NCBI RefSeq assembly: GCF_900110645.1
Contig: NZ_FOFB01000017.1
Coordinates: 62,001 to 126,000, forward strand
DNA from: Neolewinella agarilytica
GTDB taxonomy: Bacteria > Bacteroidota > Bacteroidia > Chitinophagales > Saprospiraceae
Reading direction: 5' to 3'
Length of the DNA stretch: 64,000 nt
Numbering within the stretch: position 1 is the first letter of the stretch; the number at the start of each line of letters is the position of its first letter. The notes under the pieces are model-generated. The model worked only from the letters and a program-made list of their open reading frames with translations. It ran no database searches and was not told the DNA's origin. Shown here piece after piece: positions 28,821 to 64,000 of the stretch. Both the position numbers and the translations under genes were made by a program.

Positions 28821-28911
28821 TGATAGTGGAGGTAATAATCGTAGTATAATAGTAGAGAGATGAATTTGACTACGATCATACTACGATTACGATCACTACT
28901 ACCATTACTAA
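28821..28911. repeat. Word-repeat hairpin W1
   Basis: The left arm (GTAATAATCGTAGTATAATAGTAG) and the right arm (CTACGATCATACTACGATTACGATC, then ACTACTACCATTACTA) are imperfect inverses built from a GTAGTAT/ATCGTAG word. It begins three bases after the protease stop and is followed directly by the GC-rich hairpin at 28918. Confidence 0.65.
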
Positions 28912-28917
28912 AATCAG

Positions 28918-28962
28918 GCGCGGCCGCAGGTGCAAGGAATGCATTTGCGGCCGCGCTTTTTT
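28918..28962 (+). terminator. GC-rich hairpin plus T-tract; short palindrome of the CGCAGGTGCA family
   Basis: GCGCGGCCGCAGGTGCA (28918-28934) pairs with TGCATTTGCGGCCGCGC (28940-28956), followed by TTTTTT. It probably terminates the protease transcript and is also a minimal copy of the CGCAGGTGCA palindrome. Confidence 0.75.
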
Positions 28963-29045
28963 GGAGGAGACGCTATGCGTTGAAGATCCACAAGGGCCGA
29001 GGCGCAGCGTATCCACCACCAGAAAAATCCACCCTATCTTGCAGC

Positions 29046-30512
29046 GTGAATAATCCTTACCCTTTTTTCCGTCTTGTTTTTGTGCTTGGAGTCCTCCTTT
29101 TTCCGCTTTGGCTAGGGGCACAATCTACAATCAGCCAAAGCGTAAGAGCCTTTGCGCTCGACCCGGAATTGGCCGGCGCAGCGATCTCCATTGACGTGGT
29201 AGACGTTGCTACGGGGCAGCGGGTTGCCGCTCACCAGCCCGAGATGGCCTGTATCCCGGCTTCTACCCAGAAGCTTTTGACGACGGCGGCGGCTATGGAC
29301 ATCCTCGGCCCCGATCATCGTTTTGAGACGAAGCTCTTCATCACCGGTGACGTAGTGGACGGAGAACTACGCGGAGATCTTTACATCGTGGGCGGGGGAG
29401 ACCCCAGCCTCGGTAGCCCCTTCCTGAAGGGCGTCCCCGGTCTGGAAGCCATCCTGGAGCGCTGGCGCAGCGCCGTGCAGCGTGCCGGCATCACCCGCAT
29501 CAACGGCCGGGTGATCGGAGACGGCAGCTACTGGAACACCGACGCTACGCCCGGCGACTGGCCTTACAGCGATATCGGGAACTACTACGGGGCGGGTGCC
29601 TACGGCTTAAGCATTCATGAAAACCTATATTTTCTCGACTTTCTGCAACGCTCGCGCGTCGGTAGTCAGCCGCCCATCCAGCAAACCCGGCCTCAGGTGC
29701 CGGGCCTGCACCTGATCAATGAGCTCCGCAGCGGGCCGCGGGGCAGCGGAGACCAGGCCTATGTCTACGGCTCGGCCTACAACTATCAGAACTACGTACG
29801 GGGCACCATCCCCGTTGGCAGCAAACGCTTTACCATCAAGGGCGCTATCCCTGACCCGCCGCTCTTTACCGCTCAGGCGTTCTGTCGTAAGCTCGAGGCC
29901 GTTGGCATTGACGTGGCTTTACCGGCCGAGAGCCACCGGACGCTGGGCGGTGGCCGCTATCTGGAGGGAAGAGAAATTGACGTCTACGAATCTCCCGAGC
30001 TATCCGTGCTGGTAGACCGCACGAACCTGCGAAGCCTGAACCTCTACGCCGAAGCACTCCTGCGGGAGGTCAACAAAAGCCGGGGGCTGGAAGACCATGA
30101 ACTGGGCTCCGGCAAAGTATTGAAAGACTGGCTCGCAGGCCAGGGGCTCAACCCCGGGCCGATTAACGTCGAAGATGGCAGCGGGCTCGGTACCCGGAAT
30201 TTCTTCCCCGCCGAGTTTATGACGGCCTTCCTGCGGACACAGGTGGATAACGACCGCTGGCGCGCCAGCATCCCGCTGGCTGGCCGAACGGGTAGCATGC
30301 GCGGCTTCCTGAAGGGGACCGCCGCTGAGGGCCGCCTCTCCGCCAAGTCGGGCTCCCTGAACAGCGCTCGTGCCTACGCCGGCTACGCCCGCCGTAAGGA
30401 CGGGCGGGAGCTGGCCTTCGCCATCATGGTCAATAACTACACCATCGAGGGCAAAAGTCTTCGCAACAAAATGATGGTGTTGATGCGGGAGCTTTGTAGT
30501 GGGCGTTTGTAG
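29046..30512 (+). CDS. dacB: D-alanyl-D-alanine carboxypeptidase/endopeptidase, PBP4 class (S13)
   Basis: A 488-residue periplasmic peptidoglycan hydrolase that trims D-Ala or cuts cross-links. GTG at 29046 starts MNNPYPFFRLVFVLGVLLF..LGAQ, a signal peptide; the frame is open to 28860, but that part overlaps a hairpin terminator and is not protein-like. Class C low-molecular-mass PBP motifs: SxxK in PASTQKLLTTAAA, SxN in LRSLNLYAEALLREV, and KSG (for KTG) in LSAKSGSLNSARAYAG. The large insert between the first two motifs is usual for PBP4. The stop TAG is inside a GTAG-led hairpin. Confidence 0.93.
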   Translation: MNNPYPFFRLVFVLGVLLFPLWLGAQSTISQSVRAFALDPELAGAAISIDVVDVATGQRVAAHQPEMACIPASTQKLLTTAAAMDILGPDHRFETKLFITGDVVDGELRGDLYIVGGGDPSLGSPFLKGVPGLEAILERWRSAVQRAGITRINGRVIGDGSYWNTDATPGDWPYSDIGNYYGAGAYGLSIHENLYFLDFLQRSRVGSQPPIQQTRPQVPGLHLINELRSGPRGSGDQAYVYGSAYNYQNYVRGTIPVGSKRFTIKGAIPDPPLFTAQAFCRKLEAVGIDVALPAESHRTLGGGRYLEGREIDVYESPELSVLVDRTNLRSLNLYAEALLREVNKSRGLEDHELGSGKVLKDWLAGQGLNPGPINVEDGSGLGTRNFFPAEFMTAFLRTQVDNDRWRASIPLAGRTGSMRGFLKGTAAEGRLSAKSGSLNSARAYAGYARRKDGRELAFAIMVNNYTIEGKSLRNKMMVLMRELCSGRL

Positions 30513-30552
30513 CGCCGACTTTAGTCGGCGTCTCCGTCGACTAAAGTCGACG
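30509..30552 (+). repeat. GTAG-led double REP hairpin overlapping the dacB stop
   Basis: GTAG at 30509-30512 contains the dacB stop. It is followed by CGCCGACTTTAGTCGGCG (30513-30530) and, after TCTC, CGTCGACTAAAGTCGACG (30535-30552) then GTAC. The two stems have related CGACT arms in opposite order, like a BIME pair. A shorter relative (CCGACTGAAGTCGG) is at 31276-31289. Confidence 0.75.
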
Positions 30553-30595
30553 GTACAAAATGCCGCCTTATCTTACGTCCATTAAAATCCGGTTC

Positions 30596-31258
30596 ATGCG
30601 TTACTTCTTCTTTGGCCTGATGGTCATGCTGCTGTTTACCGCCTGCCCTCCTACTCCGGAGGCACCGCCCCAACTCGACGATGATATGTTCATCGATGAC
30701 CCCGTAAACGAGGAACGCGACCGGAGTATCTGGCAGCAGCCCGGTGCCGTAATGGATGCCATGGGAGACATCCGCGAAAAGGTGATTGCTGACATCGGTG
30801 CCGGTAAGGGCTTCTTCGCCAAGCGCCTCGCGCTGGTCGCTGACCGGGTCATCGCCGTGGAAATCAATGACAGCCTGATTGTAGACCTGGAACAACTCCG
30901 TGAAGTAGAGCTCCCCAAGGAATTCAGGCCCCGGCTGGAGCCCCGCCTCGGTACGGAGAGTGACCCGAAACTGGAAAAAAGCGAAGTAGACATTATTCTC
31001 CTGGTTAATACCCTTATGTACATCGAAAACCAGGAAGATTACCTGAAGAAGCTCTATCCCGCCCTGCGCTCCGACGGCCGCATCGTCATCGTCGACTGGA
31101 AGAAGCGCGATACCATCGAAGGCCCCCAAAAGAGCAAGCGCCTGGCACTAGGTACCCTCGAAGAACAACTAAAAGCTGCCGGCTTTCACCTCGTCTCCAG
31201 CGACGATCTGACGCTGAAGTATCAGTATATCGTGGTGGCGGATAAGGTGAGGGAGTGA
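30596..31258 (+). CDS. Lipid-anchored class I SAM-dependent methyltransferase-like protein
   Basis: A 220-residue protein. The N-terminus MRYFFFGLMVMLLFTACPP is a lipoprotein signal (lipobox FTAC), followed by a Pro-rich linker and then a Rossmann methyltransferase domain: VIADIGAGKGFFAKRLA (motif I), VIAVEIND (acidic end of strand 2), DIILLVNTLMYI (motif IV region) and GRIVIVDWKKRD. Such enzymes normally work in the cytoplasm with S-adenosylmethionine, so an envelope location is odd. Either the anchor is not processed, or the domain has a different role there. The ATG at 30596 starts the signal. The gene follows dacB after a repeat hairpin of about 80 bases. Confidence 0.8.
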   Translation: MRYFFFGLMVMLLFTACPPTPEAPPQLDDDMFIDDPVNEERDRSIWQQPGAVMDAMGDIREKVIADIGAGKGFFAKRLALVADRVIAVEINDSLIVDLEQLREVELPKEFRPRLEPRLGTESDPKLEKSEVDIILLVNTLMYIENQEDYLKKLYPALRSDGRIVIVDWKKRDTIEGPQKSKRLALGTLEEQLKAAGFHLVSSDDLTLKYQYIVVADKVRE

Positions 31259-31290
31259 GGGATGGTTTAGTTTAGCCGACTGAAGTCGGG

Positions 31291-31356
31291 GCTGTGTTAC
31301 GAAGCTCTGCGAGCTCTTCTTTGCGCGGAAGAGCTCGCAGAGCTTCGTAACACAGC
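31291..31356. repeat. Perfect 29-bp inverted repeat
   Basis: The arm 31291-31319 (GCTGTGTTACGAAGCTCTGC, then GAGCTCTTC) is the exact reverse complement of 31328-31356, with an 8-base loop TTTGCGCG. The right arm with its continuation (CACCAGTTTCAACCGG) matches single-arm copies at 35397-35443 and 45731-45775. It lies between the convergent methyltransferase and MMPL genes. Confidence 0.85.
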
Positions 31357-31390
31357 ACCAGTTTCAACCGGAACCAATGGCATAAGCACC

Positions 31391-31432
31391 TCCATTGCTC
31401 TTCAACCTCCCCCTGCACCCGCGCCCGTCGCC
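31391..31432 (+). repeat. Half copy of the CGCAGGTGCA repeat family
   Basis: TCCATTGCTCTTCAACCTCC followed by CCCTGCACCCGCGCCCGTCG. The first part matches 25412-25456 and the second is a diverged TGCACCTGCG core. Confidence 0.55.
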
Positions 31433-31482
31433 CTTCCCACCTCCAAAGTGCGGCAGCCTATCAGACTACAAGCACCACCAGC

Positions 31483-33750
31483 CTACTCCCTGTCCAACCA
31501 TCTAAGCATCAGCGGAATCAGCATCAAGTCACTCAACACCGCGCTCGCCAGCGTCAAACTGATCAATAGCCCGATCGTCACGCTCGGCGGGTGAATGCTG
31601 AAGAGCATCACCAGGAAGCCGAAAAAGAGGACGACGGAGGTGAGCACGATGGCCTTGCCCGCCTCCTTGAAGGTGACGTGGATGGCATCATCGATGCTCA
31701 TGCCCCGGTCGCGTGCGAGCTTGTATTTGGCGAGGAAGTGGATGGTGTCATCCACCGCGATGCCGAAGATGATGGCGAAGACGATGCTCACGCCCGCCTC
31801 CAGCTCGATGCCCAGATAGCCGAGCGTGGCGCCGGCAAAAAGTAGCGGAAGCACGTTGGGCACCAGACTCACGATCAGCATTTTCCAGTTGCGGAAGAGG
31901 AGCATCATCAGTACACAGACGATCAGGATCGCCAGCCCGAGCCCCTGCAGCAGGTTCTCGCGGATGTACTCCGAGTTCTTATCGATGATGACGCCCGTTC
32001 CCGTGCTGCGGACTTCCACCAGCGAGGTGTCGATGTTGGCATTCACCCAGGCGTCCGTGCGGGCCAGGAAGGCCTGGGTGCTGTCTGCCCCAAGGTCATT
32101 GAGGCGGCTGGTGATGCGGGCCTTTTTGCCATCCTTACTCATGAGGATGTTCAGGCTCAGGGCCGGGACCTGCCGGGCGAGGCGCTGGTATTTGGCGTAG
32201 GTCCGCTCGTCCGTCGGCAGCTCGTAGGCATCCGGGCGGTTGTTGTTGAACATCTGATTGATACTGCGGTAGATGGCCGTGACGCTGGCCGTGCTCCGCA
32301 CGGCGTCAAACTGCTTCACGTAGTCCTCAATGCGGCCAATCTCGGTCATCACCGCAAAGTCGGTGATCTGCGCAGAGTCCTTCGCCGTTACCGCCATCTC
32401 GAAGGGGCGAAAACCGGCCAGCTCTTTTTCGAAAAAGAGGAAGTCCTCCGTGATCTTTTTGCCGCGGGGCAGGGCCGACTCGATGCGGTTGTTGGTCGTG
32501 ATCATGCTGATGCCCAGCGCACAGAAGACGGCGAAGAAGGCGGCACCGATCTTGATCTTGCCCGGGCTGGTCTTGGTGAACTGGTAGGCGCGCTCCAGCA
32601 GCCGGTCCCAGAAGGCTTGCTGCCGACCAATTTTGACGATCTGATCCACGCTCAGGTAGGAGAGTAGTGCTGTGGTGAAAAAGATGACCGTCACGTAGGC
32701 GACCATCACGCCCAGAGCGGCGTTGATGCCGAAGTCCCGGATTGGGTTGATCCGGCTGGTGAGCAGGGTGGCGAAGCCAACGGCGGTAGTCAGCGAAGTC
32801 AGCAAGGTCGCCATGCCGATCTCCCGAATGGTGATTTTGATGGCCGTTTCCTTGTCTTTGCCCGCCCGTAGCTCATCGATGTATTTGGACATGATGTGGA
32901 TCACGTCCGAGGTCCCAACAATGATCATCAGTACGGGGTAGAGTGCCGCGATGGCGTTCAACTCCCGCCCCAACAGGCCAAGCAGACCGAGGAACAGCAG
33001 CAGCCCCAGCCCAATACTCACCAGAGAAACGAGAATGCCCAACGGCCGCCGGAACAGTAAAAACATGATGAAAAATACCAGGATTCCGGAGATGACGGCG
33101 GAGACAGCTACTTCCCGCACCTGCATGTCCACCATCTCTTTCTGGAAAAAAGCGGAGCCGAGGTAGTGGTAATCTTCAAAGTCATAGTTGGCCATCAGGT
33201 CTTCCACACCCGCCATCAGGGCCTTACTCTTATCGATGCTGGACGGGCCATCACCTTCTCCCGTCAGGTTGATCAGGCTTTCGGTTTTGAGCAAAACGAC
33301 CAGAGCCGTCCCTCTTTCGTTGATGAGGGTGTTGACGAAGCGCTCGTCCTGCATGATGCGCAGGCTATCGGCTTGGTAGCGTGAGGGGTCATTCCGGTGA
33401 ATGGCCGGGATGGTGGTGACGGCAAAGGGCGTCTTGAGCGGATAGACGAAGGTCGTCAGGCTCTGCACACCCTCGATGTAATCCAGGTCGCGGGCCTTCA
33501 GGGCAAAGTCATGGGCGTTCTCCAGAAAGGTAGAGTCGAACACGCCATTCTCCCGCTCTAAAGCGACCAGCAGGAAATTATCGTCGCCCTCAAATTCCTC
33601 GATAAACTCCAGAAAAAAGGCCAGGTCATCATCTCCCCGCGGGAAGAACTGCGAAAAGTCAAAGGTGAACTTCAGGTTAAAGCAGCCGTAAACTGCCGCA
33701 GCACTGAAGAGGGCAAAAACGATGAGAACGGGGAGGCGGTATTGGCGCAT
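31483..33750 (-). CDS. RND superfamily (MMPL/HpnN-type) exporter
   Basis: A 755-residue inner-membrane protein with the RND plan duplicated in one chain: one N-terminal helix (YRLPVLIVFALFSAAAVYG), a periplasmic domain (FDFSQFFPRGDDDLAFF...), five helices (ILVFFIMFLLFRRPLGILVS to about 400), then one helix, a second periplasmic domain and five more helices. Helix 4-type blocks with acidic residues (IIVGTSDVIHIMSKYIDELR and IIFGIAVDDTIHFLAKYKLAR) are the proton-relay signatures of MMPL/HpnN transporters, which move lipids or hydrophobic molecules towards the outer membrane. The ATG at 33748-33750 precedes the first helix; upstream in-frame codons overlap a repeat region. Confidence 0.9.
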   Translation of the reverse strand: MRQYRLPVLIVFALFSAAAVYGCFNLKFTFDFSQFFPRGDDDLAFFLEFIEEFEGDDNFLLVALERENGVFDSTFLENAHDFALKARDLDYIEGVQSLTTFVYPLKTPFAVTTIPAIHRNDPSRYQADSLRIMQDERFVNTLINERGTALVVLLKTESLINLTGEGDGPSSIDKSKALMAGVEDLMANYDFEDYHYLGSAFFQKEMVDMQVREVAVSAVISGILVFFIMFLLFRRPLGILVSLVSIGLGLLLFLGLLGLLGRELNAIAALYPVLMIIVGTSDVIHIMSKYIDELRAGKDKETAIKITIREIGMATLLTSLTTAVGFATLLTSRINPIRDFGINAALGVMVAYVTVIFFTTALLSYLSVDQIVKIGRQQAFWDRLLERAYQFTKTSPGKIKIGAAFFAVFCALGISMITTNNRIESALPRGKKITEDFLFFEKELAGFRPFEMAVTAKDSAQITDFAVMTEIGRIEDYVKQFDAVRSTASVTAIYRSINQMFNNNRPDAYELPTDERTYAKYQRLARQVPALSLNILMSKDGKKARITSRLNDLGADSTQAFLARTDAWVNANIDTSLVEVRSTGTGVIIDKNSEYIRENLLQGLGLAILIVCVLMMLLFRNWKMLIVSLVPNVLPLLFAGATLGYLGIELEAGVSIVFAIIFGIAVDDTIHFLAKYKLARDRGMSIDDAIHVTFKEAGKAIVLTSVVLFFGFLVMLFSIHPPSVTIGLLISLTLASAVLSDLMLIPLMLRWLDRE

Positions 33751-33997
33751 GGGGAGTCTGGTAACAACCGGACGCTCAAAGGAACTCAGAACTACGCTAC
33801 GCTTCGTGCTGAGCACCTTCGAGGACCTTAATGATAACCTTCGCACCAAGGACCTCGAAGGTGTTGGCCACGTAGCCTAAGGCGGAGGAGCCAATTCCTT
33901 TGAGGGTCCGGTTAACGAAGGATACTTCTCTAAGCGCTCCCACCCGAAATGGTTGGGAAAATCCTGCTTTAATGACTTGTTTTTTACGCCCGGTCAA

Positions 33998-34014
33998 CGC
34001 TCCTTCCAGGAGCG
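33998..34014. repeat. CTTCCAG-centred hairpin
   Basis: CGCTCCTTCCAGGAGCG, a short stem with the same CTTCCAG centre as the pair at 1776-1816. Confidence 0.6.
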
Positions 34015-34090
34015 AGCAGCAGCGAACATTCTCCGGATGCAAGTTGACGGATCCCCTCCTGCCTCCTTGAACCGGACCTCGAAGCGTCGC

Positions 34091-34165
34091 GACAGCGACC
34101 TTCGAGCGTCCTGGTGACAGCGACCTTCAAGGGGCTTGGCGACAGCGACCTTCAAACGTCCTGAT
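34091..34165. repeat. Three tandem 25-bp repeats
   Basis: Units 34091-34115, 34116-34140 and 34141-34165 each begin GACAGCGACCTTCRA and have an exact 25-base period; the ends vary (GCGTCCTGGT, GGGGCTTGGC, ACGTCCTGAT). The array ends 12 bases before the pdxA stop codon. The period is not a multiple of three, so it is not coding. Confidence 0.85.
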
Positions 34166-34177
34166 GACATCACCTCC

Positions 34178-35290
34178 CTACTTCTTCCCCCGAGGCCCCT
34201 TCTTCCCCGCAGGCTTACCGCCAGGTTTTCCACCTTTCGGCTTGCGCTTATACACGAGGTGCATACGGCTGGTAAGCGGGTTCGCCGTGTCTTCGGTGTG
34301 GCGCTCGCGGTTCAGGAAGGCGTCGCGGGCAACGAAAAGAGCAGCGATGAAAGAATCGGGGTTGGCCTCATCTTTTCCTACCAGGTCGTAGGCCGTTCCA
34401 TGGTCGGGGCTGGTACGGATGGCGGGTAGGCCGGCGGTGAAGTTGACTCCTTTGCCAAAGCTGAGCGCTTTGAAAGGAATCAGGCCCTGGTCGTGGTACA
34501 TCGCCAGCACGGCATCGAACTGGTTTTGCTTGCCGGCGCCGAAGAAGCCGTCAGCGGGGAAAGGCCCCATGGCCAGAATGCCCATCTCTTTAGCTTTCTC
34601 TACGGCGGGGCGGACGATCTTGATGTCCTCATCCCCGATGCGGCCGTCATCGCCACCGTGCGGATTCAGGGAGAGCACCGCGATAACCGGGCGGGCGAGT
34701 CCGAAGTCGGCCCGCAGGCTCTTATCCATAATCTTCAGCTTATCGATGATGCGCTGTTTCGTAACCGCTTTGGCGACTTCAGAGACCGGGATGTGGTTGG
34801 TAACTATGCCCACACGAAGCTCATCGGTAACGAGGAACATGAGGCTCTCGTTGGCATCAAGTTTTTCGGTCAGCATTTCCGTGTGGCCGGGGTAGGGGAA
34901 AGCGTCTTTGGGCATCACCGATTTGTTGATCGGGGCGGTGACCAGAGCGTCGAGCTGGCCATCTTTAAGTTCCTCGACGGCGGCTTCGAGGCTCATGGCC
35001 GCAGCGCGGCCGCCGGCTTCGGTGGCTTCGCCGGGGGTGTATTCAATGTCTTCGGGGAAGGCCTCTACGAGATTGATCTGCCCGTCTTCCGCGTCTTCTG
35101 CTTTTGCAATGATGGTAAAGGAAAAGTCAGCCGTTTCTTCGCTGGTATAGCGGCTCAGCGCTGCGGCAGAAGCGTAGATCACGGGCGTCACCAGCTCCAG
35201 GATGCCGGGGCGCGAAAGGGCCTTGATGACTACTTCGGGGCCGATGCCGTTGGGGTCGCCGATGGAGATGCCGATCTGGAGAGGATTCAT
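34178..35290 (-). CDS. pdxA: 4-hydroxythreonine-4-phosphate dehydrogenase
   Basis: A 370-residue enzyme of pyridoxal 5'-phosphate synthesis (DXP-dependent route): NAD-dependent oxidation of 4-phosphohydroxy-L-threonine. Signatures: GISIGDPNGIGPEVV at the N-terminus, YPGHTEMLTEKL, LSLNPHGGDDG (metal His), AMYHDQGLIPFKAL and FTAGLPAIRTSPDHGTAYDL. The ATG at 35288-35290 gives the usual start MNPLQIGIS. The C-terminus has an unusual basic Lys/Gly/Pro tail of about 22 residues (KPKGGKPGGKPAGKKGPRGK) beyond the normal end, perhaps for nucleic acid or ribosome contact, perhaps neutral. A TACCTTCG box lies about 25 bases upstream. Confidence 0.95.
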   Translation of the reverse strand: MNPLQIGISIGDPNGIGPEVVIKALSRPGILELVTPVIYASAAALSRYTSEETADFSFTIIAKAEDAEDGQINLVEAFPEDIEYTPGEATEAGGRAAAMSLEAAVEELKDGQLDALVTAPINKSVMPKDAFPYPGHTEMLTEKLDANESLMFLVTDELRVGIVTNHIPVSEVAKAVTKQRIIDKLKIMDKSLRADFGLARPVIAVLSLNPHGGDDGRIGDEDIKIVRPAVEKAKEMGILAMGPFPADGFFGAGKQNQFDAVLAMYHDQGLIPFKALSFGKGVNFTAGLPAIRTSPDHGTAYDLVGKDEANPDSFIAALFVARDAFLNRERHTEDTANPLTSRMHLVYKRKPKGGKPGGKPAGKKGPRGKK

Positions 35291-35337
35291 ACTGCTTTTA
35301 GTTTGCGGCACGAAGGTAGCGAGAAGTAAAACAATCT

Positions 35338-35380
35338 GGCGCGGACGCAGGTGCAAGGGGAGAATTTAAAAGCAAGGGAA
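35338..35380 (+). repeat. Half copy of the CGCAGGTGCA repeat family
   Basis: GGCGCGGACGCAGGTGCAAG followed by GGGAGAATTTAAAAGCAAGG, like 848-886 and the left half of 52291-52387. Confidence 0.65.
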
Positions 35381-35396
35381 GTGCCCGGCTCGGCCA

Positions 35397-35443
35397 AATA
35401 GCTCGCAGAGCTTTGCAAGACAGCACCGGCTTCAGCCAGCAAC
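35397..35443 (+). repeat. Composite repeat (AGCTCGCAGAGCTT + CACCGGCTTCAGCC)
   Basis: Reads TAGCTCGCAGAGCTTTGCAA, then GACAGCACCGGCTTCAGCC, closely matching 31331-31372 and 45731-45775. Confidence 0.65.
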
Positions 35444-35523
35444 ATTTTAATTAATAATTGCGCTCCGCTTGCCAACACGCTGCTGAAGCAAAGCCTTACC
35501 TTGCGCCCTTCAAACTTATCCCC

Positions 35524-36778: not shown

Positions 36779-36818
36779 AGCTTAATCGTTGGGTTGTTTC
36801 CGTTGGACGAAGGTCCGC

Positions 36819-39366: not shown

Positions 39367-39464
39367 TAGTAATGTAGTAGTGTAGTTTGGTAGTACTGTA
39401 GTGCTTCAACTGCTTACCCTACGACCACTACATTACTGCAATAATACATTACTACATTACTACC
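39367..39464. repeat. Word-repeat hairpin W2 in the serS leader
   Basis: The left arm (AGTAATGTAGTAGTGTAG ... TAGTACTGTAGTG) is an imperfect inverse of the right arm (CACTACATTACTGCAATA ... CATTACTACATTACTACC). The word is GTAGTAAT. The right arm ends two bases before the serS ATG. Confidence 0.8.
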
Positions 39465-46514: not shown

Positions 46515-46522
46515 CAAAGGTA
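46515..46522 (-). promoter_or_regulatory. -7 box of rluF; leaderless start
   Basis: Minus strand TACCTTTG followed by CCCA and then ATG. Transcription usually starts within about 4-8 bases of this box, at or next to the ATG. Confidence 0.6.
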
Positions 46523-46652
46523 GTCTTGTGGTCTGATAGTCTTGCAGGCTACCGCATTTGATTGGCGGCAATGTACGGCAGGTATATATTACCTCCAACG
46601 CCTTCAACATGCGGAGCCTGCAAGACTACAAGACGATCAGACTACAAGACTA
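46521..46652. repeat. Word-repeat hairpin W3
   Basis: TAGTCTTGTGGTCTGATAGT then CTTGCAGGCT at the left; GAGCCTGCAAGACTACAAGA then CGATCAGACTACAAGACTA at the right. The arms are near-perfect inverses around a spacer of about 65 bases. The word is GTCTTGTAGTC. It lies between the divergent rluF and HD-domain genes and abuts the rluF promoter. Confidence 0.8.
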
Positions 46653-53932: not shown

Positions 53933-54038
53933 TATGGTAGTTATTGTAGTAATGTAGTAATGTAGTGCCCGTCACTCCTGCTGCAGTTGCTACAAGGAAC
54001 TACATTACTACAACACTACATTACTATAATACTATCCC
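53933..54038. repeat. Word-repeat hairpin W4 filling the nqrD-nqrE gap
   Basis: Left arm GGTAGTTATTGTAGTAATGT then AGTAATGTAGT; right arm ACTACATTACTACAACACTA then CATTACTATAATACTATCC. Imperfect inverses with the word GTAGTAAT. It starts at the base after the nqrD stop and ends one base before the nqrE ATG, so it occupies the entire intergenic space. Confidence 0.85.
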
Positions 54039-54039
54039 C

Positions 54040-54758: not shown

Positions 54759-56063
<1,305 letters not shown>

Positions 56064-56082
56064 TGACCAGAAACACAAGCAG

Positions 56083-56117
56083 AAAAGCCCCGGTAACTTT
56101 AGTTGCCGGGGCTTTTT
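56083..56117 (+). terminator. Terminator of the nqr operon
   Basis: AAAAGCCCCGGTAACT and AGTTGCCGGGGCTTTTT form a long stem (one mismatch) with a short loop and a T-tract. Confidence 0.93.
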
Positions 56118-57563: not shown

Positions 57564-57657
57564 GAGATGGGATTAGAAAGGCCCTTAACGGTATTTGATG
57601 CCCGGAACTGCGATCAAATGCCGCTACTTTGCGTTATTGTGGAGAAAACCAAGCAGA

Positions 57658-58602
57658 ATGAATAAGAAAACACTGACCGCCATAGCCATCATCCTCGGAT
57701 TACTGTTCCTCGGATCTCTCTTTTGGGGTATAAGCCGTAATAATGCTGCCGGAGAATTGCAGGTGGAAAACGAGACTATTAGTGCTGAAGCAACGCAGCT
57801 TGCCTTATTAAGGGATAAGCTTCAGATGGAGGTAGATAGTATTGGCGTCGCTTTTGAAACAGCTGCTGCTGACAACGAAGAACTCCGCGGGCAGCTAACG
57901 GAAGCTCAGGAACAAGCCAAGCGTGCGCTGTACAGCATGCGGCAGGCGCAGAAGTCTCGTAAGAACGATAATGACGTAGCTTATCAAATGCGACTTCAGA
58001 TCGAGGATTTGATCAATACCCGCGCAACTTTAGAACGCAACCTGGCAGAATTGGAGACGGAGAATGCAGAGTTACGTAAGACCAACGTTGTTCTTCGTCA
58101 GGATTTAAGCACTGCCAAGTCAGCAGCCTACGAAATGGAGAAAAAGGCGACTAACCTGGAAACCATGACGAAAAGCATGGAAGCTGAAATTGAAAAAATG
58201 ACGCTGGGCGCTTTTAAAGCTTCAGCTTTCCAGGTAGATCTCTTCCGTGGAAACAAAGGGACAAAGCTCACTTCCAACGCCAGCCGGGTAAAGCGCATTA
58301 ATGTCAGCTTTGACCTCACGAATGTGCCTGATGAATATCTGGGCGTCAGACCTATCTACTTCGTGTTGACGGATCAGTCCGGCACTCCCGTTACTTCAGA
58401 AAACCCAGTAATGGCTAAGGCGATTGTCAATGGTGCGCCGATGAACCTCATTGCTCTGGAAGGACGCGATGTAAACGTGGAAAAAAACCAACGGCTTAGT
58501 TTTACCCATGAGCTGGACGTAAAGCTAGATGCAGGTTTCTACCGTGCGCAAATTTTTACGGACCTTGGGCTGCTGGGAGCAGCTAACGTACAACTGCGGT
58601 AG
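57658..58602 (+). CDS. Single-span membrane protein with coiled coil
   Basis: A 314-residue protein: one N-terminal helix ([19 protein letters not shown]), a long coiled coil of about 150 residues ([20 protein letters not shown] ... [19 protein letters not shown] ... [19 protein letters not shown]), then a beta-rich C-terminal domain ([40 protein letters not shown]). No family recognised with confidence; similar proteins occur widely in Bacteroidota as hypothetical. Its topology suits a periplasmic spacer or scaffold. ATG 57658 precedes the helix. The stop is followed directly by the W5 hairpin. Confidence 0.8.
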
Positions 58603-58690
58603 TTGCAGGTTTCAAGTTGCAAGTTTCAAGTTTCAGGTTGCAGGTTTGGACGGGAACCTGCCACTTGAAACCTGCAACCTGTACAACTTG
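58602..58690. repeat. Word-repeat hairpin W5 upstream of accA
   Basis: GTTGCAGGTTTCAAGTTGCA then AGTTTCAAGTTTCAGGTTGC at the left; CCTGCCACTTGAAACCTGCA then ACCTGTACAACTTG at the right. Inverted arms with the word GTTTCAAGTTGCA. It begins at the stop of the coiled-coil gene and ends 12 bases before the accA -7 box. Confidence 0.8.
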
Positions 58691-58702
58691 CCTCATAAAC
58701 GT

Positions 58703-58710
58703 TACCTTTG
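58703..58710 (+). promoter_or_regulatory. -7 box of accA
   Basis: TACCTTTG, exact consensus, 31 bases before the accA ATG. Confidence 0.6.
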
Positions 58711-58741
58711 CCCCGCTTTACTCAAAAACCGAATCAAGCCC

Positions 58742-59698
58742 ATGGTATTTCTCGAGTTTGAACGCCCGCTGGAAAAGCTCTATGAGCAATTGGAGAAAGT
58801 CCGCCAGGTGGAAGAAGACGGAGTCGTAGATATGAAGGAGACGATCCAGGAACTGGAGAATCGAATTCGTCAGACACGCAAAGAGATTTACAGCGACCTG
58901 AACGGTTGGCAGCGTGTACAACTCTCCCGTCATCCGGAAAGACCTTATTCCCTTTTCTACATCCAGCAGATGTGCCGCAAATTCGTGGAACTTCACGGGG
59001 ACCGGTATTACGGAGACGATAAAGCGGTAGTTGGTGGAATTGGTAACCTGGATGGCCAGACCGTAGTCATTCTTGGCCACCAGAAAGGTGTTAGTACCAA
59101 AATGCGTCAGTACCGAAACTTCGGGATGGCTAATCCGGAAGGATATCGGAAAGCCCTGCGACTAATGAAGATGGCGGAACGATTCGGCTTCCCCGTGATA
59201 ACGCTGATTGATACGCCGGGTGCTTACCCTGGCATCGAAGCAGAGGAGCGGGGTCAGGCGGAAGCCATCGCCCGCAACCTGTTTGAAATGGCTCAGCTTC
59301 GGGTGCCTATCGTCTGTGCAGTCATCGGAGAGGGGGCAAGTGGTGGTGCCATCGGCATTGGCCTGGGCGATCACGTTATGATGCTTGAAAACACCTGGTA
59401 TTCGGTCATTAGTCCGGAAAGTTGCTCCAGTATCCTCTGGCGTAGTTGGGACTATAAAGAACAGGCCGCAGAAGCACTGAAACTTACCGCCGAGGATATG
59501 CTCGGATTTGGAATCATTGACGAGATCGTGAAGGAACCTCAGGGAGGCGCCCACGGTGCGCCGGAAGAGATGGCAAAGTCTTTGAAAAAACAACTAAAAA
59601 AAGCCATCGCTGCTCTTCAGGAGAAAGATGTGGATACTATGATCGAAGAGCGCATCGAGAAGTACGCGGCCATTGGCCACGTGGCTAACAGGGATTAA
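58742..59698 (+). CDS. accA: Acetyl-CoA carboxylase carboxyltransferase subunit alpha
   Basis: A 318-residue subunit that, with AccD, transfers carboxyl from biotin to acetyl-CoA in the first step of fatty-acid synthesis. The start [20 protein letters not shown] is standard. Conserved blocks: [81 protein letters not shown], and [20 protein letters not shown] with the oxyanion glycines. Length normal. Codons upstream of 58742 in the same frame are W5 repeat. The next gene begins four bases after its stop. Confidence 0.98.
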
Positions 59699-59701
59699 TC
59701 C

Positions 59702-60262
59702 ATGGGGCTGCTCAGCGACATAAAGGACAAGCTCTTCCGCCGTAAACTGCAAGAAGAGAGGGCCCGTTCTTCCCGTAGAAGTATGGGAAGCCAACAACCG
59801 ATAAATACGGACAATGCACGCTGTATTCTTATCCTCTTTCCAGCAGATTCCTCAACAGATCGTAAGGTGGTTGATAAATGGGTGGACGCCCATCGAAAGC
59901 AAGGGCAGAAAATTAAAATAGCCGGATTTTTCAGTCAGGACGTAGGAGAAACCAACTTTGGCTTCCCGGTTATTTCCCCCAGAAACCTTAACTGGTACGG
60001 AATACCCAAAGAAGACTCGTTAGTGGAGATTAAACGAATCGACTGCGACTTAATCTTACGCCTGGGCCCCGTCATCCACAAAGAATTAGACTACCTGGCA
60101 ACGATTCAGCAGGCAGGTTTGAAAGTAGGCCCCTTTAAGCAGGACCTAGAGGACACTCCCTATCATTTACAATTTGACGCCGGTCGTGCAGAATCTATTC
60201 GGGACCAGTTAACCGCCATCGAGCAAATATTCAGCTTTACGAATGCACACAGCACTACCTAA
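59702..60262 (+). CDS. Conserved hypothetical protein linked to dapA (DUF6913-like)
   Basis: A 186-residue soluble protein. The N-terminus is basic (LLSDIKDKLFRRKLQEERAR), then an alpha/beta domain (CILILFPADSSTDRKVVDKW, KIAGFFSQDVGETNFGFPVI, ISPRNLNWYGIPKEDSLVEI, DCDLILRLGPVIHKELDYLA, VGPFKQDLEDTPYHLQFDAG). Proteins of this type are known to me as hypothetical genes next to dapA in Bacteroidota; the DUF number is from memory and uncertain. It starts four bases after accA and overlaps dapA by 20 bases, so the three are likely translated from one message. Confidence 0.75.
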   Translation: MGLLSDIKDKLFRRKLQEERARSSRRSMGSQQPINTDNARCILILFPADSSTDRKVVDKWVDAHRKQGQKIKIAGFFSQDVGETNFGFPVISPRNLNWYGIPKEDSLVEIKRIDCDLILRLGPVIHKELDYLATIQQAGLKVGPFKQDLEDTPYHLQFDAGRAESIRDQLTAIEQIFSFTNAHSTT

Positions 60263-61148
60263 ATTCAGCGGGACGGGCGTTGCCCTTGTTACCCCTTTCA
60301 AAGCGGACTACTCTGTTGACTATCCTTCCCTGGGGCAGATCATTGACTACGTAATTGATGGAGGAGTTGACTACATCGTTTGCCTCGGCACTACGGGGGA
60401 GGCCATTACGCTCAGCTCAAAAGAATGTCGGGAGATACTGGACTTTACTATCCGTCAGGTAGACGGACGGGTAGATATCGTCGCTGGATTTTTCGGAGGC
60501 AACTACACCGAACGGCTGGAGGAAAGAATAAAGGGTTTCAACTTCGACGGGGTAGCGGGAATTATGTCCAGCAGTCCTGCTTACAGTAAACCTCCGCAGG
60601 AAGGCATCTACCAGCACTTTATGCGGGTGGCGGATGCCAGCCCGCTGCCGGTCATCATTTATAATGTACCCGGCAGGACAAGCAGCAACGTCCTTCCGGA
60701 AACCATTCTCCGCCTTTCAGAAAATTCGCAAAACTTCGCAGCGGTTAAGGAGGCCAGCGGAAATCTGGAGCAGTCCATTGCCATCCTCAAGCATTGCCAT
60801 AAAGATTTTGGTGTGCTCTCCGGTGATGACCCTCTGACCACCGCCGTGATCGCCATGGGCGGCCACGGAGGCATCAGCGTTATTGCTAACGCACTACCGG
60901 CTCACTTCAGTCAGATGGTAAAGTCCGCACTTAATAACGACTTCGCCACCGCCCGTCGCTTCAATTACGATCTGTTGGACATTCACCCGCTACTCTACGT
61001 AGAAGGGAACCCGGTAGGCATCAAAGCCGCCGTGTCTATGCTCGGTCTCTGTGAAAACCATCTGAGAGTGCCGTTGGTCCCTCTGACGGAGCCGCGGCGG
61101 GAGCGATTACGGAAGTTAATGAGCCTGGTGCCGGATTTCCGGGTGTAG
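60243..61148 (+). CDS. dapA: 4-hydroxy-tetrahydrodipicolinate synthase
   Basis: A 301-residue class I aldolase-fold enzyme that condenses pyruvate with aspartate semialdehyde in lysine and diaminopimelate synthesis. Schiff-base Lys169 in FAAVKEASGNLEQ, Tyr140 in IIYNVPGRTSSN and the substrate block CLGTTGEAITLS are all present. Length is normal. ATG 60243 lies inside the end of the preceding gene (20-base overlap in another frame), giving translational coupling. Confidence 0.97.
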   Translation: MHTALPKFSGTGVALVTPFKADYSVDYPSLGQIIDYVIDGGVDYIVCLGTTGEAITLSSKECREILDFTIRQVDGRVDIVAGFFGGNYTERLEERIKGFNFDGVAGIMSSSPAYSKPPQEGIYQHFMRVADASPLPVIIYNVPGRTSSNVLPETILRLSENSQNFAAVKEASGNLEQSIAILKHCHKDFGVLSGDDPLTTAVIAMGGHGGISVIANALPAHFSQMVKSALNNDFATARRFNYDLLDIHPLLYVEGNPVGIKAAVSMLGLCENHLRVPLVPLTEPRRERLRKLMSLVPDFRV

Positions 61149-61166
61149 AATATCCAAATCTATACA

Positions 61167-61194
61167 TTTGCCTGATCCTTGATCCGTACCTTTG
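61167..61194 (+). promoter_or_regulatory. Promoter of the small membrane gene; leaderless start
   Basis: TTTG at 61167-61170, a 16-base spacer, and TACCTTTG at 61187-61194 match the Bacteroidota -33/-7 pattern closely. The ATG at 61199 begins five bases after the -7 box, so the transcript should start at or near the ATG. The TTTG is itself part of a second TACATTTG box (61163-61170). Confidence 0.65.
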
Positions 61195-61198
61195 CCCT

Positions 61199-61384
61199 AT
61201 GGATCTCATCATCACCATCGCCTTAGTCTATCTGGCTTATCGGGGATACCAATGGTATTCCGCTATGCAAGCACAGGTAAACCAGGGCCCACCTCCCCCT
61301 CCCAGAGTGGACGATGACACCGTAGAGATTTCCGATCAACCGGACAACGATACGGATTATATCGATTACGAAGAATTACCCTGA
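61199..61384 (+). CDS. Small single-span membrane protein (possibly DUF4834-like)
   Basis: A 61-residue protein: hydrophobic N-terminus MDLIITIALVYLAYRGYQWY, then a Gln/Pro-rich linker (NQGPPPPP) and a very acidic tail (DDDTVEISDQPDNDTDYIDY). Hydrophobic anchor, Pro-rich hinge and acidic end resemble the small DUF4834-type proteins of Bacteroidota, but this is a weak match. It starts at a leaderless promoter and ends four bases before the pseudouridine synthase gene, so it may be cotranscribed with it. Confidence 0.7.
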   Translation: MDLIITIALVYLAYRGYQWYSAMQAQVNQGPPPPPRVDDDTVEISDQPDNDTDYIDYEELP

Positions 61385-61387
61385 ATT

Positions 61388-62071
61388 ATGGCGGATACTC
61401 CCCGATTTAAAGGTCGCATCAGTGACTGGATTTTGCATAAAGACAACCAGCTGATCGCTTTTAACAAGCCTGCAGGCCTGGCCGTACAGCCCGATAAAAC
61501 GGGAGACCCCAGCTTACTCGGGCTGGGAGCCGCTTACATCCGGCATGACCTTTACCTGATTCATCGCCTGGACCGCCCGGTCTCCGGCATCGTCTTACTG
61601 GGGCAAAAACCTTCGGCCCAGACGGCGCTGACGCGCCAGCTTAAAGCCGGAACGGTCGATAAGCACTACCTGGCCATCGTGGCGAACCGCCCGGAAGAAG
61701 ACGAGGCTACGCTCGTCCATCACCTCCGCAACGGAAAAGGGAATCGCTCCGTTATTGAAGAAAACCCGGCCCCCGGCAACAAAGCCGCAGAGTTACACTA
61801 CAAGGTGCTGGGCTCCAGCGACCGGTACCACCTGTTGGCTGTTCAGTTGAAGACGGGCCGCAAGCATCAAATCAGGGCGCAACTTGCCGCCATCGGCTGT
61901 CCGCTTCGTGGAGATGCTAAGTATGGCTTTAAGCGATCCAACGAAGATGGACATATCGACCTGCACAGCCACCGCATTGCTTACAACCATCCCATTACGG
62001 GAGAGCGAATGGAACATACTGCTCCCTTGCCGGAAGGGGCGGTATGGGAAGCTTTCGCTGAGATGGTGTAA
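61388..62071 (+). CDS. RluA-family RNA pseudouridine synthase
   Basis: A 227-residue pseudouridine synthase of the RluA family without an S4 domain. The catalytic Asp is in LYLIHRLDRPVSGIVLLGQK; other blocks are NKPAGLAVQPDKTGDPSLLG, KHYLAIVANRPEEDEATL, TGRKHQIRAQLAAIGCPLRG and GDAKYG. The target (tRNA or rRNA) cannot be told. It starts four bases after the small membrane protein gene. Another pseudouridine synthase, of the RsuA/RluF branch, is at 45806-46510. Confidence 0.93.
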   Translation: MADTPRFKGRISDWILHKDNQLIAFNKPAGLAVQPDKTGDPSLLGLGAAYIRHDLYLIHRLDRPVSGIVLLGQKPSAQTALTRQLKAGTVDKHYLAIVANRPEEDEATLVHHLRNGKGNRSVIEENPAPGNKAAELHYKVLGSSDRYHLLAVQLKTGRKHQIRAQLAAIGCPLRGDAKYGFKRSNEDGHIDLHSHRIAYNHPITGERMEHTAPLPEGAVWEAFAEMV

Positions 62072-62162
62072 ACGGAGAATGTTCCCTCAAAGCCGTTTGG
62101 TCGTTGTGCTGTAGCCTTTCTATTACCATACAACTGCCAACCTACATTACTATCTTCGTCTT

Positions 62163-62336
62163 ATGCCAAAACAGTCTACCCGCCATAGCTATAAGAGCCG
62201 TCGTGAGCGCAATACCGAAACCGGTAAGAAGGCTCGTCTGATTCTGATCTTCGCGGCCATCATCACCGTGTTGATGATTCTGCGCAACTGGCGGGAGCAT
62301 TACGCCTGGCTGAAAACCTACTTTTACGACTTCTGA
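62163..62336 (+). CDS. 57-residue single-span membrane protein, coupled to the next gene
   Basis: Reads MPKQSTRHSYKSRRERNTET at the N-terminus (very basic), then a hydrophobic helix (ARLILIFAAIITVLMILRNW) and a short C-terminus rich in aromatics (LKTYFYDF). Basic side inside predicts a C-terminus outside. The stop TGA overlaps the ATG of the glycosyltransferase gene as TGATG (62334-62338), a strong sign that it is a real translated gene coupled to its partner. A TATCTTCG box is 10-20 bases before the ATG. No family known. Confidence 0.75.
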   Translation: MPKQSTRHSYKSRRERNTETGKKARLILIFAAIITVLMILRNWREHYAWLKTYFYDF

Positions 62337-63913
62337 TGCCCGCTGGTCCGTCCCCGAAATATTGGTTAGTTCTGGCACTTTTACTGGGCCTTGCACTGCG
62401 CGTTCCCGGCTGGTTTACGCAAGATCATAAGGCGAACTGGCAAACCTTTGAGCCCGATGAAGGCCAGCACGTGCACATCGCCACCACTCGTTTCAACGAC
62501 CTTTATGAGGGAGAAAAAGTAGGGAGTTATTCTGACGCCCCGTGGAATGTTCGGGGCTACGGGCACCTAATGGCTTACACGGCTTATGGTTGGTATAAAG
62601 TGAGTGGACAAGTGCCTTCCTTCGCTGGTTTCATTCTGTTGGGCCGGCAGCTGTCCACTGTTTTTGCCATCTTGCTCATCATTGTCGTGTACAAACTCGG
62701 ACGGGTCAGTGGTCTCGATCCGCCGGCCGCTGCCATAGCGGCTTTACTGATGGCCGCTTGCGACGTCAATGCTACCTACAGCCATTACTGTCTGCCGGCC
62801 AGCGGATATATTCTGTGGGGTTACCTCGCGCTGTTGGGGGGCTTCCAGCTATTGCGATTGCCAACAATTAGCGGTCTGATCTGGCTCGCCCTCGGGGTGG
62901 CGGGAGCGCTTTCCTTTAAGTTTGATGTCTTACCATTAGGATGGGGAGGTCTACTATTATTATTTCTCGCTCTGCAAAAGCGAATTCCCGTGTATTTCAT
63001 CGCCCTGGCACTGGGCCTGTTGGCCGTGTTTGTCGCTGCTTTTGTGTACGGCTGGGCGTGGGACAGCATAGCGTCAACCTTTCAGACACTTAGCGAATTG
63101 AACCGTAACGGCGTTCCGGTGGATGATCATTTCCGGGACAACCTGATCGTTTATCCGGCCGGCGTGCTGGCGGGAGTTGGCCTGCCGGTATTTGCCCTCG
63201 CGGTGTACGCACTAAGCCGGGCATTCAGAATGTTTGGGCGCGAGTCCGCAGGTGCAAAGGAGGTTAACGGGCAGGGCTTTACCCGGCTGGCAATACTCTA
63301 CGCCGCCGGCTGGCTCTTGAGCGAATTTCTGGTGCGATGGTCAGTGGATACTGCTTTCATTCGCCGGGTAAATGTATTTATGCCAGCGGTTTGTCTGCTG
63401 GCGGCTTATGGCCTGAGCCAGCTGCGGCAGCGCCGGCCCTGGCTACCGGCGGCGGTGGTAACCTATACGTTCTTGTTCGCCCTCATTGGGCAGAGCAACC
63501 ACTGGTTTGATACCCGCTATGAGATGCGGGAGTGGATCGCCACGGAGCTTCCGGCAGAGGCGACCATCGCTGCGTCCAACTACGTCGGCCATAAAGGCCT
63601 CCGTAAAACCTGGTACTTTATGGATGTCGACTGGGACTACGCCATTCTCCACGAGTCCTATTTCCGCCGCTACGCCAAAAGCATGACTACGCCCTTTGGC
63701 TGGCCAGATTGCGAAACGGAGGTTTACAACCCCGGCCCCGAGGGCCAGTGCGCACAAATGCAGGCCCTGCTGAAAGGGACCAAGCCGGATGCGCGCCTGC
63801 TCAAAGCCTTCCGCCCACTCGAGCTATTCCCCGAGCGTTGGGCCTACCGGCAGTTCTTCGGCTATTACGAGACCTTCCTGGGGGAGACGCTGGTGTTTGA
63901 GCGAGCAAGGTGA
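62336..63913 (+). CDS. ArnT/GT39-like membrane glycosyltransferase
   Basis: A 525-residue polytopic membrane protein with about eleven helices. After helix 1, WQTFEPDEGQHVHIATTRF carries the acidic residues at the place of the PMT/ArnT catalytic site. Later segments are strongly hydrophobic (LLGRQLSTVFAILLIIVVYK, IPVYFIALALGLLAVFVAAF) and the C-terminal about 110 residues are soluble (IAASNYVGHKGLRKTWYFMD). Sugar donor is probably a polyprenyl-phosphate sugar. Translation is coupled to the 57-residue gene through TGATG. The region 63239-63262 contains a CGCAGGTGCA repeat core coding ESAGAKE. Confidence 0.82.
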   Translation: MPAGPSPKYWLVLALLLGLALRVPGWFTQDHKANWQTFEPDEGQHVHIATTRFNDLYEGEKVGSYSDAPWNVRGYGHLMAYTAYGWYKVSGQVPSFAGFILLGRQLSTVFAILLIIVVYKLGRVSGLDPPAAAIAALLMAACDVNATYSHYCLPASGYILWGYLALLGGFQLLRLPTISGLIWLALGVAGALSFKFDVLPLGWGGLLLLFLALQKRIPVYFIALALGLLAVFVAAFVYGWAWDSIASTFQTLSELNRNGVPVDDHFRDNLIVYPAGVLAGVGLPVFALAVYALSRAFRMFGRESAGAKEVNGQGFTRLAILYAAGWLLSEFLVRWSVDTAFIRRVNVFMPAVCLLAAYGLSQLRQRRPWLPAAVVTYTFLFALIGQSNHWFDTRYEMREWIATELPAEATIAASNYVGHKGLRKTWYFMDVDWDYAILHESYFRRYAKSMTTPFGWPDCETEVYNPGPEGQCAQMQALLKGTKPDARLLKAFRPLELFPERWAYRQFFGYYETFLGETLVFERAR

Positions 63914-63916
63914 TTT

Positions 63917-64000
63917 GGTAGACGGTAGGCTGTAGACGGTAGAGCGGTAGACGGTAGAGCGGCAAGCAGTAGATATGCTCTACAGTCTACCGTCTACCGT
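63917..64000. repeat. Word-repeat hairpin W6 (runs to the window edge)
   Basis: Left arm GTAGACGGTAGGCTGTAGAC then GGTAGAGCGGTAGACGGTAG; right arm TGCTCTACAGTCTACCGTCT then ACCGT. Inverted arms with the word GTAGACG. It begins four bases after the glycosyltransferase stop; its end is outside the window or at the last base. Confidence 0.8.

What the first reader, a model, noticed from the sequence alone, without database searches (positions are those of the whole stretch)
28821..64000. A family of hairpins built from locus-specific short words (W1-W6)
Six gaps (28821-28911, 39367-39464, 46521-46652, 53933-54038, 58602-58690, 63917-64000) hold the same kind of object: 85-130 bases, two imperfectly inverted arms, each arm a run of a quasi-repeated 7-13-base word. 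The word changes from locus to locus (GTAGTAT, GTAGTAAT, GTCTTGTAGTC, GTTTCAAGTTGCA, GTAGACG), so ordinary sequence searches would not group them although the layout is the same. They begin within a few bases of a stop codon or end within a few bases of a start codon. I know no named family with such grammar. They may arise by replication-template switching or by an enzyme that copies or extends hairpins, and may act as transcript-processing or 3'-end protecting structures.
Basis: seen in the sequence. Interest (0 to 1): 0.78.

Follow-up and report, generated by a model that had tools for sequence, protein, structure and literature searches.

The report
Word-built hairpins rewritten in place
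Between the genes of a marine Lewinella-type bacterium lie many hairpins built from short repeated "words"; at the same gap between the same two genes a related species can carry a hairpin made of different words, which points to fast rewriting of short DNA repeats in fixed places.

Summary
A scan of 1.64 Mb (26%) of the same genome finds 53 inverted repeats with periodic, mostly 7-8-nt, arms; Markov controls give none. Nine or more word classes recur in the genome. Two features are new: (1) Polarity: the G-rich arm comes first in 51 of 53, whatever the gene orientation. (2) Slots persist while words change: the nqrD-nqrE gap holds GTAGTAAT, GATAGTAGT, TTGGTCTT, GATTGTTA or AACTAGG hairpins in different species; atpD-atpC holds GTAGTAAT in one species and TTGGTATT in its near sister. 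Stop-codon anchoring is real (25 of 49 roomy gaps, 6.2 expected) but shared by other inverted repeats. They are not intrinsic terminators, do not match the repeats beside this genome's Y1-transposase genes, and show no G-U over A-C excess on the mRNA strand. Best reading: inherited REPIN-like intergenic elements whose arms are satellite-like arrays under fast, DNA-level concerted evolution. The writing mechanism and any function are unproved. New variant of a known kind (dispersed intergenic palindromes); nine searches of an open-access library listed no description.

The parts
28821..28911 (.). W1: hairpin of ATAGTAGT/GTAGTAT-type words, 2 nt after the stop of a secreted trypsin-like/P-domain protein gene (25576-28818)
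   Evidence: z -4.9; periodicity below the automatic cut-off
39367..39464 (.). W2: hairpin of GTAGTAAT words, ends 2 nt before the serS start; rho is divergent on the left
   Evidence: z -6.1; same-genus serS leaders
46521..46652 (.). W3: hairpin of GTAGTCTT words round a GGCTACCGCA...TGCGGAGCC inner stem, 10 nt upstream of a minus-strand pseudouridine synthase gene
   Evidence: z -12.4
53933..54038 (.). W4: hairpin of GTAGTAAT words filling the gap between two Rnf-Nqr subunit genes (named nqrD and nqrE here from their order; both match PF02508)
   Evidence: z -5.9; orthologous slot in 21 genomes; fold-back test
58602..58690 (.). W5: hairpin of GTTGCAG/GTTTCAAG words, from the last base of the stop of gene 57658-58602, upstream of accA and of a TANNTTTG-like site (promoter consensus recalled)
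   Evidence: z -4.4
63917..64000 (.). W6: hairpin of GGTAGAC words, 3 nt after the stop of gene 62336-63913; continues to 64005 on the contig
   Evidence: z -6.5; inner segment inverted in sister species G018

Best explanation
W1-W6 belong to a large class of intergenic DNA elements of Lewinella-type Bacteroidota. Each is a pair of inverted arrays of a 7-8-nt word, G-rich array first, so that either DNA strand can fold into a hairpin with a G-rich 5' arm. Shown: the elements sit in non-coding slots, often right after stop codons; slots that could be compared are occupied in both of two sister species in 8 of 11 cases; in most of these the sequence has been replaced much faster than the flanking genes, and both arms carry the new word. 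Inferred: arrays gain, lose and vary words by replication slippage; words spread between the two arms, and now and then from other loci, by inverted strand switching or recombination at the extruded hairpin. This is concerted evolution of a mini-satellite folded back on itself, and a genome-wide set of words results. The product resembles a REPIN (inverted doublet that folds), but I infer upkeep by repeat turnover at the DNA level rather than by recognition of one fixed REP sequence. A useful side effect, as hairpin spacers between genes, is possible and unproved; stop anchoring may only reflect where insertions are tolerated.
For: Excess: 53 periodic inverted repeats in 1.637 Mb against 0; intergenic 50 against 0 in five controls. 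Polarity: 51 of 53 own, 8 of 8 in convergent gaps; sister G018 14 of 14, G008 7 of 7 after dropping 4 rows that are N-runs, G009 7 of 8; array groups found without any pairing criterion: 25 in order G-rich/C-rich, 1 the other way. Slot kept, content changed: 11 slots could be anchored between own genome and G018; 8 are occupied in both, seven of them with changed content, while aligned stretches of these contigs are 75-91% identical. nqrD-nqrE: 7 of 9 tested genomes fold back better than all 40 shuffles, with at least five word types; the own hairpin is closer to that of G017 (score 61) than to that of the nearer sister G018 (29), so G018 was rewritten. W6 inner segment inverted. Stem mismatches show no strand bias (68 G-U, 81 A-C), as a DNA-level process predicts.
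Against: In the GTTGCAG class arms of one locus match no better than arms of different loci, so direct arm-to-arm copying is not shown. The polarity is not explained by plain slippage. For the two swapped G018 hairpins the hits shown elsewhere are only partial (72-95% over 36-120 nt, first seven hits, 1.64 + 0.23 Mb searched), so no donor is identified. The metG leader hairpin is 99% identical to the sister's over 104 nt, against the general pattern. In 3 of 11 slots the own copy is weak or not distinguishable from shuffles. Slot-by-slot presence tests with strict cut-offs were not significant. 82 of 114 array groups are one-armed at my cut-off, some with a weaker partner (W5 is one of them).
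Confidence: 0.5

Rival explanations
1. Selected RNA hairpins at transcript ends or between operon genes: the cell needs a stable stem after the stop codon (3'-end protection, ribosome or polymerase effects) and any word that pairs will do, so sequence drifts while the slot and the stem are kept.
For: Stop anchoring: 25 of 49 roomy gaps within 20 nt of the stop, 6.2 expected. Slots kept across species. RNA z-scores -3.9 to -12.4 in 12 of 12 folded sequences. REPs closer than 16 nt to a stop can lower translation in E. coli (earlier work cited in PMC12306157, passages).
Against: No G-U excess over A-C on the sense strand: 68 against 81, p 0.33, 65 periodic elements (non-periodic ones 93 against 73, p 0.14). 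Polarity is the same in convergent and divergent gaps. W2 and W3 lie before start codons. No T-run follows any of the six; W3-W6 are not among 22 terminator-like sites in 46001-64000, though that scan only admits loops of 3-8 nt. Non-periodic inverted repeats are stop-anchored too (15 of 54 roomy gaps, 5.3 expected). At the metG slot G017 keeps, by eye, only one arm.
Confidence: 0.22
2. RAYT/HUH-moved REPINs: a Y1 transposase in trans spreads the hairpins, recognising GTAG-like feet; the polarity is the head-to-head REP order.
For: Five Y1_Tnp matches in the genome. Several words contain GTAG; head-to-head doublets are the common REP order (PMC3733652, passages). [quoted passage not shown]
Against: Around the five Y1_Tnp matches (3.2-3.3 kb each) there are 0 periodic-arm inverted repeats and one single-armed array, AGTCAGGG, near one of them; by eye the flanks carry GC-rich repeats of other kinds. 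By eye no constant sequence is shared by the word classes. 8 of 11 anchored slots are occupied in both sisters, so persistence rather than presence/absence.
Confidence: 0.15
3. Template-writing enzyme: a reverse transcriptase or telomerase-like activity adds G-rich words to a 3' end, which folds back and is filled in, giving the G-first polarity.
For: Polarity 79 of 82 over four genomes, own and G018 partly orthologous; variant-word arrays look, by eye, like irregular telomere repeats.
Against: Only one RVT_1 match in the genome, against nine or more word classes. No word template was looked for beside it.
Confidence: 0.05

Closest known systems
REP / REPIN elements with RAYT (TnpA_REP)
   Same: Intergenic, dispersed, inverted doublets that fold, fixed relative polarity, often just after stop codons
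   Different: No constant 20-40-nt REP; arms are arrays of a 7-8-nt word; many words per genome; the word differs between species at one slot; no word hairpin within about 1.5 kb of the five Y1_Tnp matches here
Intergenic heptamer direct repeats (TAACTGA repeats of Beggiatoaceae, Cyanobacteria and five Bacteroidetes; PMC4679880, abstract and passages)
   Same: Tandem 7-nt words in intergenic space near gene ends, also in Bacteroidetes
   Different: One fixed heptamer as direct repeats, with one inverted case among the 170 sets of the Maribeggiatoa genome; here inverted pairs, many variant words, hairpins
Atypical structures beside Bacteroidetes TnpA_REP subclass 2.6 (PMC6006769, passages)
   Same: Bacteroidetes; secondary structures with copies elsewhere in the genome
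   Different: Defined next to the transposase gene; the Y1_Tnp loci here hold no word hairpin. The subclass of the five genes was not determined
Intrinsic terminators / bidirectional terminators
   Same: Stem after the stop codon, also between convergent genes
   Different: Long stems without a U-tract, also before start codons and inside operons (nqr, atp)

Membership tests
REP (GTAG/CGTC families) | 20-40-nt palindrome, stem 5-13 bp | tested here: not met
   W1-W6 are 84-132 nt with ungapped arms of 24-37 nt; definition from PMC3733652 (abstract, passages)
REP (GTAG/CGTC families) | GTAG or CGTC tag at the hairpin foot | tested here: not met
   Not shared by all: by eye GTTGCAG, TTGGTCTT, TAGTCAAA, GATTCTC and GAATGAGG elements lack it
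REP/REPIN with RAYT | Copies flank the cognate Y1_Tnp gene | tested here: not met
   0 periodic inverted repeats and 1 single-armed word array in five loci of 3.2-3.3 kb
REPIN | Inverted doublet folding into one hairpin, fixed polarity | tested here: met
   51 of 53 G-rich arm first; folding z-scores
REPIN | Mobile: empty and occupied sites among close relatives | tested here: inconclusive
   8 of 11 anchored slots occupied in both sisters; several higher-GC species have, by eye, short plain spacers at accA and nqrDE
Intrinsic terminator | GC-rich stem followed by a U-tract | tested here: not met
   No TTTT within 15 nt after any of the six on either strand; W3-W6 not among the hits (loops of 3-8 nt only)
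Structured RNA families (Rfam 15) | Match at gathering score | tested here: not met
   0 matches in the window
Tandem heptamer/octamer repeats | Head-to-tail copies of a 7-8-nt unit | tested here: met
   150 arrays in 1.637 Mb, 2 in one Markov control
MITE | Terminal inverted repeats with target-site duplication | not tested
   No search for target duplications was made

The most novel reading that the evidence does not exclude
A repeat-writing system: fixed intergenic slots act as landing places that are repeatedly re-written, both arms together and always G-rich arm first, from a genome-wide and lineage-specific set of 7-8-nt words, by an unknown DNA-level machinery.
Probability: 0.2. Interest if true: 0.9.

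Novelty: new variant of a known kind. Interest (0 to 1): 0.63.

Why it matters
A hairpin that stays in place while its sequence is replaced is hard to see for alignment-based searches for conserved RNAs or repeats, so a whole class of intergenic elements may have gone unlisted in these bacteria. The strict arm polarity and the word swaps at orthologous slots give a testable handle on how palindromes are born and kept in bacterial chromosomes, where long inverted repeats are usually thought unstable (recalled).

Tried and rejected
RAYT cognates: five Y1_Tnp loci hold other repeats, by eye, and by scan no word hairpin, one single-armed word array; with about one element per 14 kb one in 16 kb is what chance gives. 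Reverse transcriptase origin: a single RVT_1 match; kept as a weak rival. RNA selection: G-U against A-C test negative. Arm-to-arm copying: negative in the only class tested, 14 loci. Slot-by-slot 2x2 tests with strict cut-offs were small and not significant: G018 p 0.11, G008 p 0.25, G009, G015 and G003acc p 1. I therefore rest on fold-back tests of single slots, which were picked by eye and cut by hand from the outputs. Leader-peptide idea for the dispersed motif next to W1 and W2: the three frames behave much alike, frame 0 slightly ahead. A viral-contig scan with the NqrF-like protein gave no relative. BLAST of window 27501-47500 against G018 showed repeat matches only (40 of 502 candidates scored, genome 55% complete), so W1-W3 have no sister comparison. 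Paper searches for such elements; listings only, except five papers of which I saw abstracts or passages. The library holds no bioRxiv preprints and lacks most subscription journals.

Limits: 26% of the own genome was scanned, in six contigs; gene calls are my own codon-usage calls; word classes are patterns I made by eye. The names atpD/atpC, metG, folC-like, nqrD/nqrE are recognised from sequence and order, without a family search for the first three. G018 contigs fetched, other than c85, were chosen because they had repeat matches, which favours slots occupied in G018; most of them did not align to the own sample.
Full report
What is there. The window is a 64-kb part of a 6.22-Mb genome in 74 contigs. 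Its AccA is 91% identical to that of Neolewinella persica; the next hits are a Bacteroidia MAG and further Neolewinella/Lewinella records, so this is a Lewinella-type Bacteroidota. The six hairpins are present as described. Each consists of two inverted arms, each arm a head-to-tail run of a word, mostly 7-8 nt, in which some positions are constant and two or three vary (by eye; for example RGTTDCA, AGTCARNN). They fold with z-scores from -4.4 to -12.4.

More than chance. I took stretches of the same genome, 1.637 Mb with the window, and scanned them for ungapped inverted repeats whose arms have an internal period of 6-16. 200 inverted repeats reach the score; 53 have periodic arms; an order-4 Markov control gives 4 and 0. 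On intergenic sequence alone (257,087 bases) the figures are 50 periodic inverted repeats and 134 arrays against 0 and 0-1 in five controls. Three 50-kb pieces of E. coli K-12 give 0 and 0. Together with array-only places there are 119 elements (53 + 66); 5 lie in predicted genes and 1 at an edge. Scaled up, the genome would hold some 450; this is an extrapolation.

Word classes. By patterns that I made by eye the 119 fall into GTTGCAG 34, TAGTCAAA 13, GATTCTC 10, TTGGTCTT 10, GTAGTCTT 8, GTAGTAAT 8, GAATGAGG 8, GGTAGAC 6, GTAAGGGA 1, and 21 unclassified. W5 has 82 matches in the genome, itself and both strands of some loci included, with 40 of 98 candidates scored. 15 of 53 carry a GCTRCCGC-type piece. 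Other genomes use other sets, by eye: G008 mainly GGTTGTCG, G009 often AGTCTGT, with GATTCTC and TTGGT-type words shared. The layout with other words occurs in 9 of 67 AccA-flanking loci outside Neolewinella (L106-L172, mostly Saprospiraceae by title; 13 elements, N-runs left out).

Polarity. The arm with more G than C comes first in 51 of 53, in 14 of 14 in G018, 7 of 7 in G008 (four N-run rows dropped) and 7 of 8 in G009; in the wider set only 10 of 13. The own and G018 sets share some slots, so these are not all independent. Non-periodic inverted repeats show a milder bias, 87 against 53 with 7 ties. Reverse-complementing a hairpin leaves this order unchanged, so the rule does not depend on the direction of transcription; it holds in 8 of 8 convergent, 4 of 5 divergent and 39 of 40 co-directional gaps. 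Array groups found without any pairing criterion give 25 in this order and 1 in the other.

Place. 113 elements are intergenic: 74 between co-directional genes, 21 convergent, 18 divergent, close to the background of spacers. In co-directional gaps with more than 60 nt of free room, 25 of 49 start within 20 nt of the upstream stop; random placement gives 6.2 (largest of 2000 trials 15). The start side is not enriched, 9 against 6.2. Non-periodic inverted repeats are also stop-anchored (15 of 54, expected 5.3), so this is not special to the word hairpins.

Slots persist, words change. G018 is the nearest relative among the 20 same-genus genomes (AccA 98%); the aligned stretches used here are 75-91% identical. 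Between it and the own genome 11 slots could be anchored. In seven both species have a hairpin: W4, W5, W6, atpD-atpC, a folC-like slot at C34:214176 and C27:402 kb (fold-back above all 40 shuffles in both species), and metG (99% identical over 104 nt). In one both have an array (C45:143558). In three the own copy is weak or not above shuffles. Three more own elements had no anchors. Most G018 contigs had been chosen for repeat matches, so this is not an unbiased sample of slots. At atpD-atpC the own hairpin is GTAGTAAT-type and that of G018 is TTGGTATT-type, between closely similar flanks. At nqrD-nqrE 21 genomes were read. Nine slots that looked hairpin-like were tested; seven fold back better than all 40 shuffles (G000, G018, G017, G003, G008, G015, G010), with at least five word types; two do not (G016, G001); G003 and G015 pass by one unit only. 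The other 12 were not tested; by eye they hold short spacers or remnants. The own W4 is much closer to G017 (score 61) than to G018 (29), although G018 is the nearer relative (NqrE 96% against 93%, AccA 98% against 87%), so the change lies in the G018 lineage. At accA the own genome and G018 share the word but not its order, and G015 has an AACTAGA hairpin. At W6 an inner segment is inverted between the two species (21 of 23 nt; inverted score 19, forward 6).

Mechanism. The slot is inherited, the pairing is kept, the text is replaced. That fits arrays under rapid turnover. For an RNA function one expects G-U mismatches to be tolerated more than A-C on the sense strand: 68 against 81 in 65 elements from four genomes. 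This gives no support to RNA-level selection and fits a DNA-level process, which is blind to the strand. The W6 inversion is what strand switching between inverted arms would leave. Against simple arm copying, in the GTTGCAG class (14 loci) arms of one locus are no more alike than arms of different loci (0.69 against 0.70); so words, not word order, are shared. The G-first rule is unexplained by slippage and is the strongest hint of a directional writing step. The suspects looked at fail: no word hairpin and one single-armed array lie within about 1.5 kb of five Y1_Tnp matches, and there is one RVT_1 match. The metG leader is the exception, nearly unchanged between the sisters; by eye the same TAGTCAAA word is found at that slot in G017 (one arm only) and G015, but not in G003 or G008. 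It may have been put to use as a leader, or may simply be young.

Against the known. REPs are 20-40 nt with a GTAG or CGTC tag (PMC3733652, abstract and passages); REPINs are inverted REP doublets proposed to be moved by RAYTs (PMC3116915, passages); heptamer direct repeats are known, including long arrays in some Bacteroidetes (PMC4679880, abstract and passages); atypical structures flank Bacteroidetes subclass 2.6 TnpA_REP genes (PMC6006769, passages). The present elements share parts of each and meet the full definition of none that was tested. Nine searches of the open library listed no paper on such word-built hairpins; this library lacks most subscription journals and preprints.

Noticed in passing
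window 28917-28933 (minus) and 39346-39362 (plus); 256 strict copies in the 1.637-Mb sample: A dispersed motif, about TTGCACCTGCGNCCGCGCC, 256 copies, 112 of them inside my gene calls. Of 135 placements within 400 nt of a same-strand start, 74 lie at -175 to -1 and 15 at +25 to +49, the latter by eye in signal peptides. It adjoins W1 and W2 and occurs, with variation, in serS leaders of several same-genus species. Not a consistent leader peptide by frame test. Deserves its own study.
   Followed up: partly
G000:C34:57368-57459 (metG leader): TAGTCAAA hairpin forming much of the metG 5' leader is 99% identical in sister species G018 while the aligned gene stretch is 84% identical; related word at this slot in G017 and G015.
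   Followed up: partly
window 30506-30559 and 31276-31371: Two strong non-periodic hairpins: a CGCCGACTTTAGTCGGCG element with similar copies in the sampled genome and a 44-nt-arm inverted repeat.
   Followed up: no
L046-L050 (five Y1_Tnp matches of the own genome): By eye each lies among GC-rich repeats of its own type, for example GACGCATAGCGTC or GGACCTGGAGGTCC units; L048 also has a single-armed AGTCAGGG array at 824.
   Followed up: partly
G000:C27:111865, 152142; C41:83487, 207861; C55:115234: A near-identical dispersed hairpin with arm AGCGATCAGCGKACAGCATTCAG and an 11-nt loop.
   Followed up: no
window 20197-20499 and 20426-21123: Gene 17815-21732 (minus) holds 63-nt and 321-nt repeats of CCTTGnTCnCCCTGnGGnCC type, which looks collagen-like (my reading, not searched).
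   Followed up: no
L221 (G001, serS leader): By eye, a long near-perfect non-periodic palindrome sits near the place where W2 lies in the own genome, just upstream of the dispersed motif.
   Followed up: no
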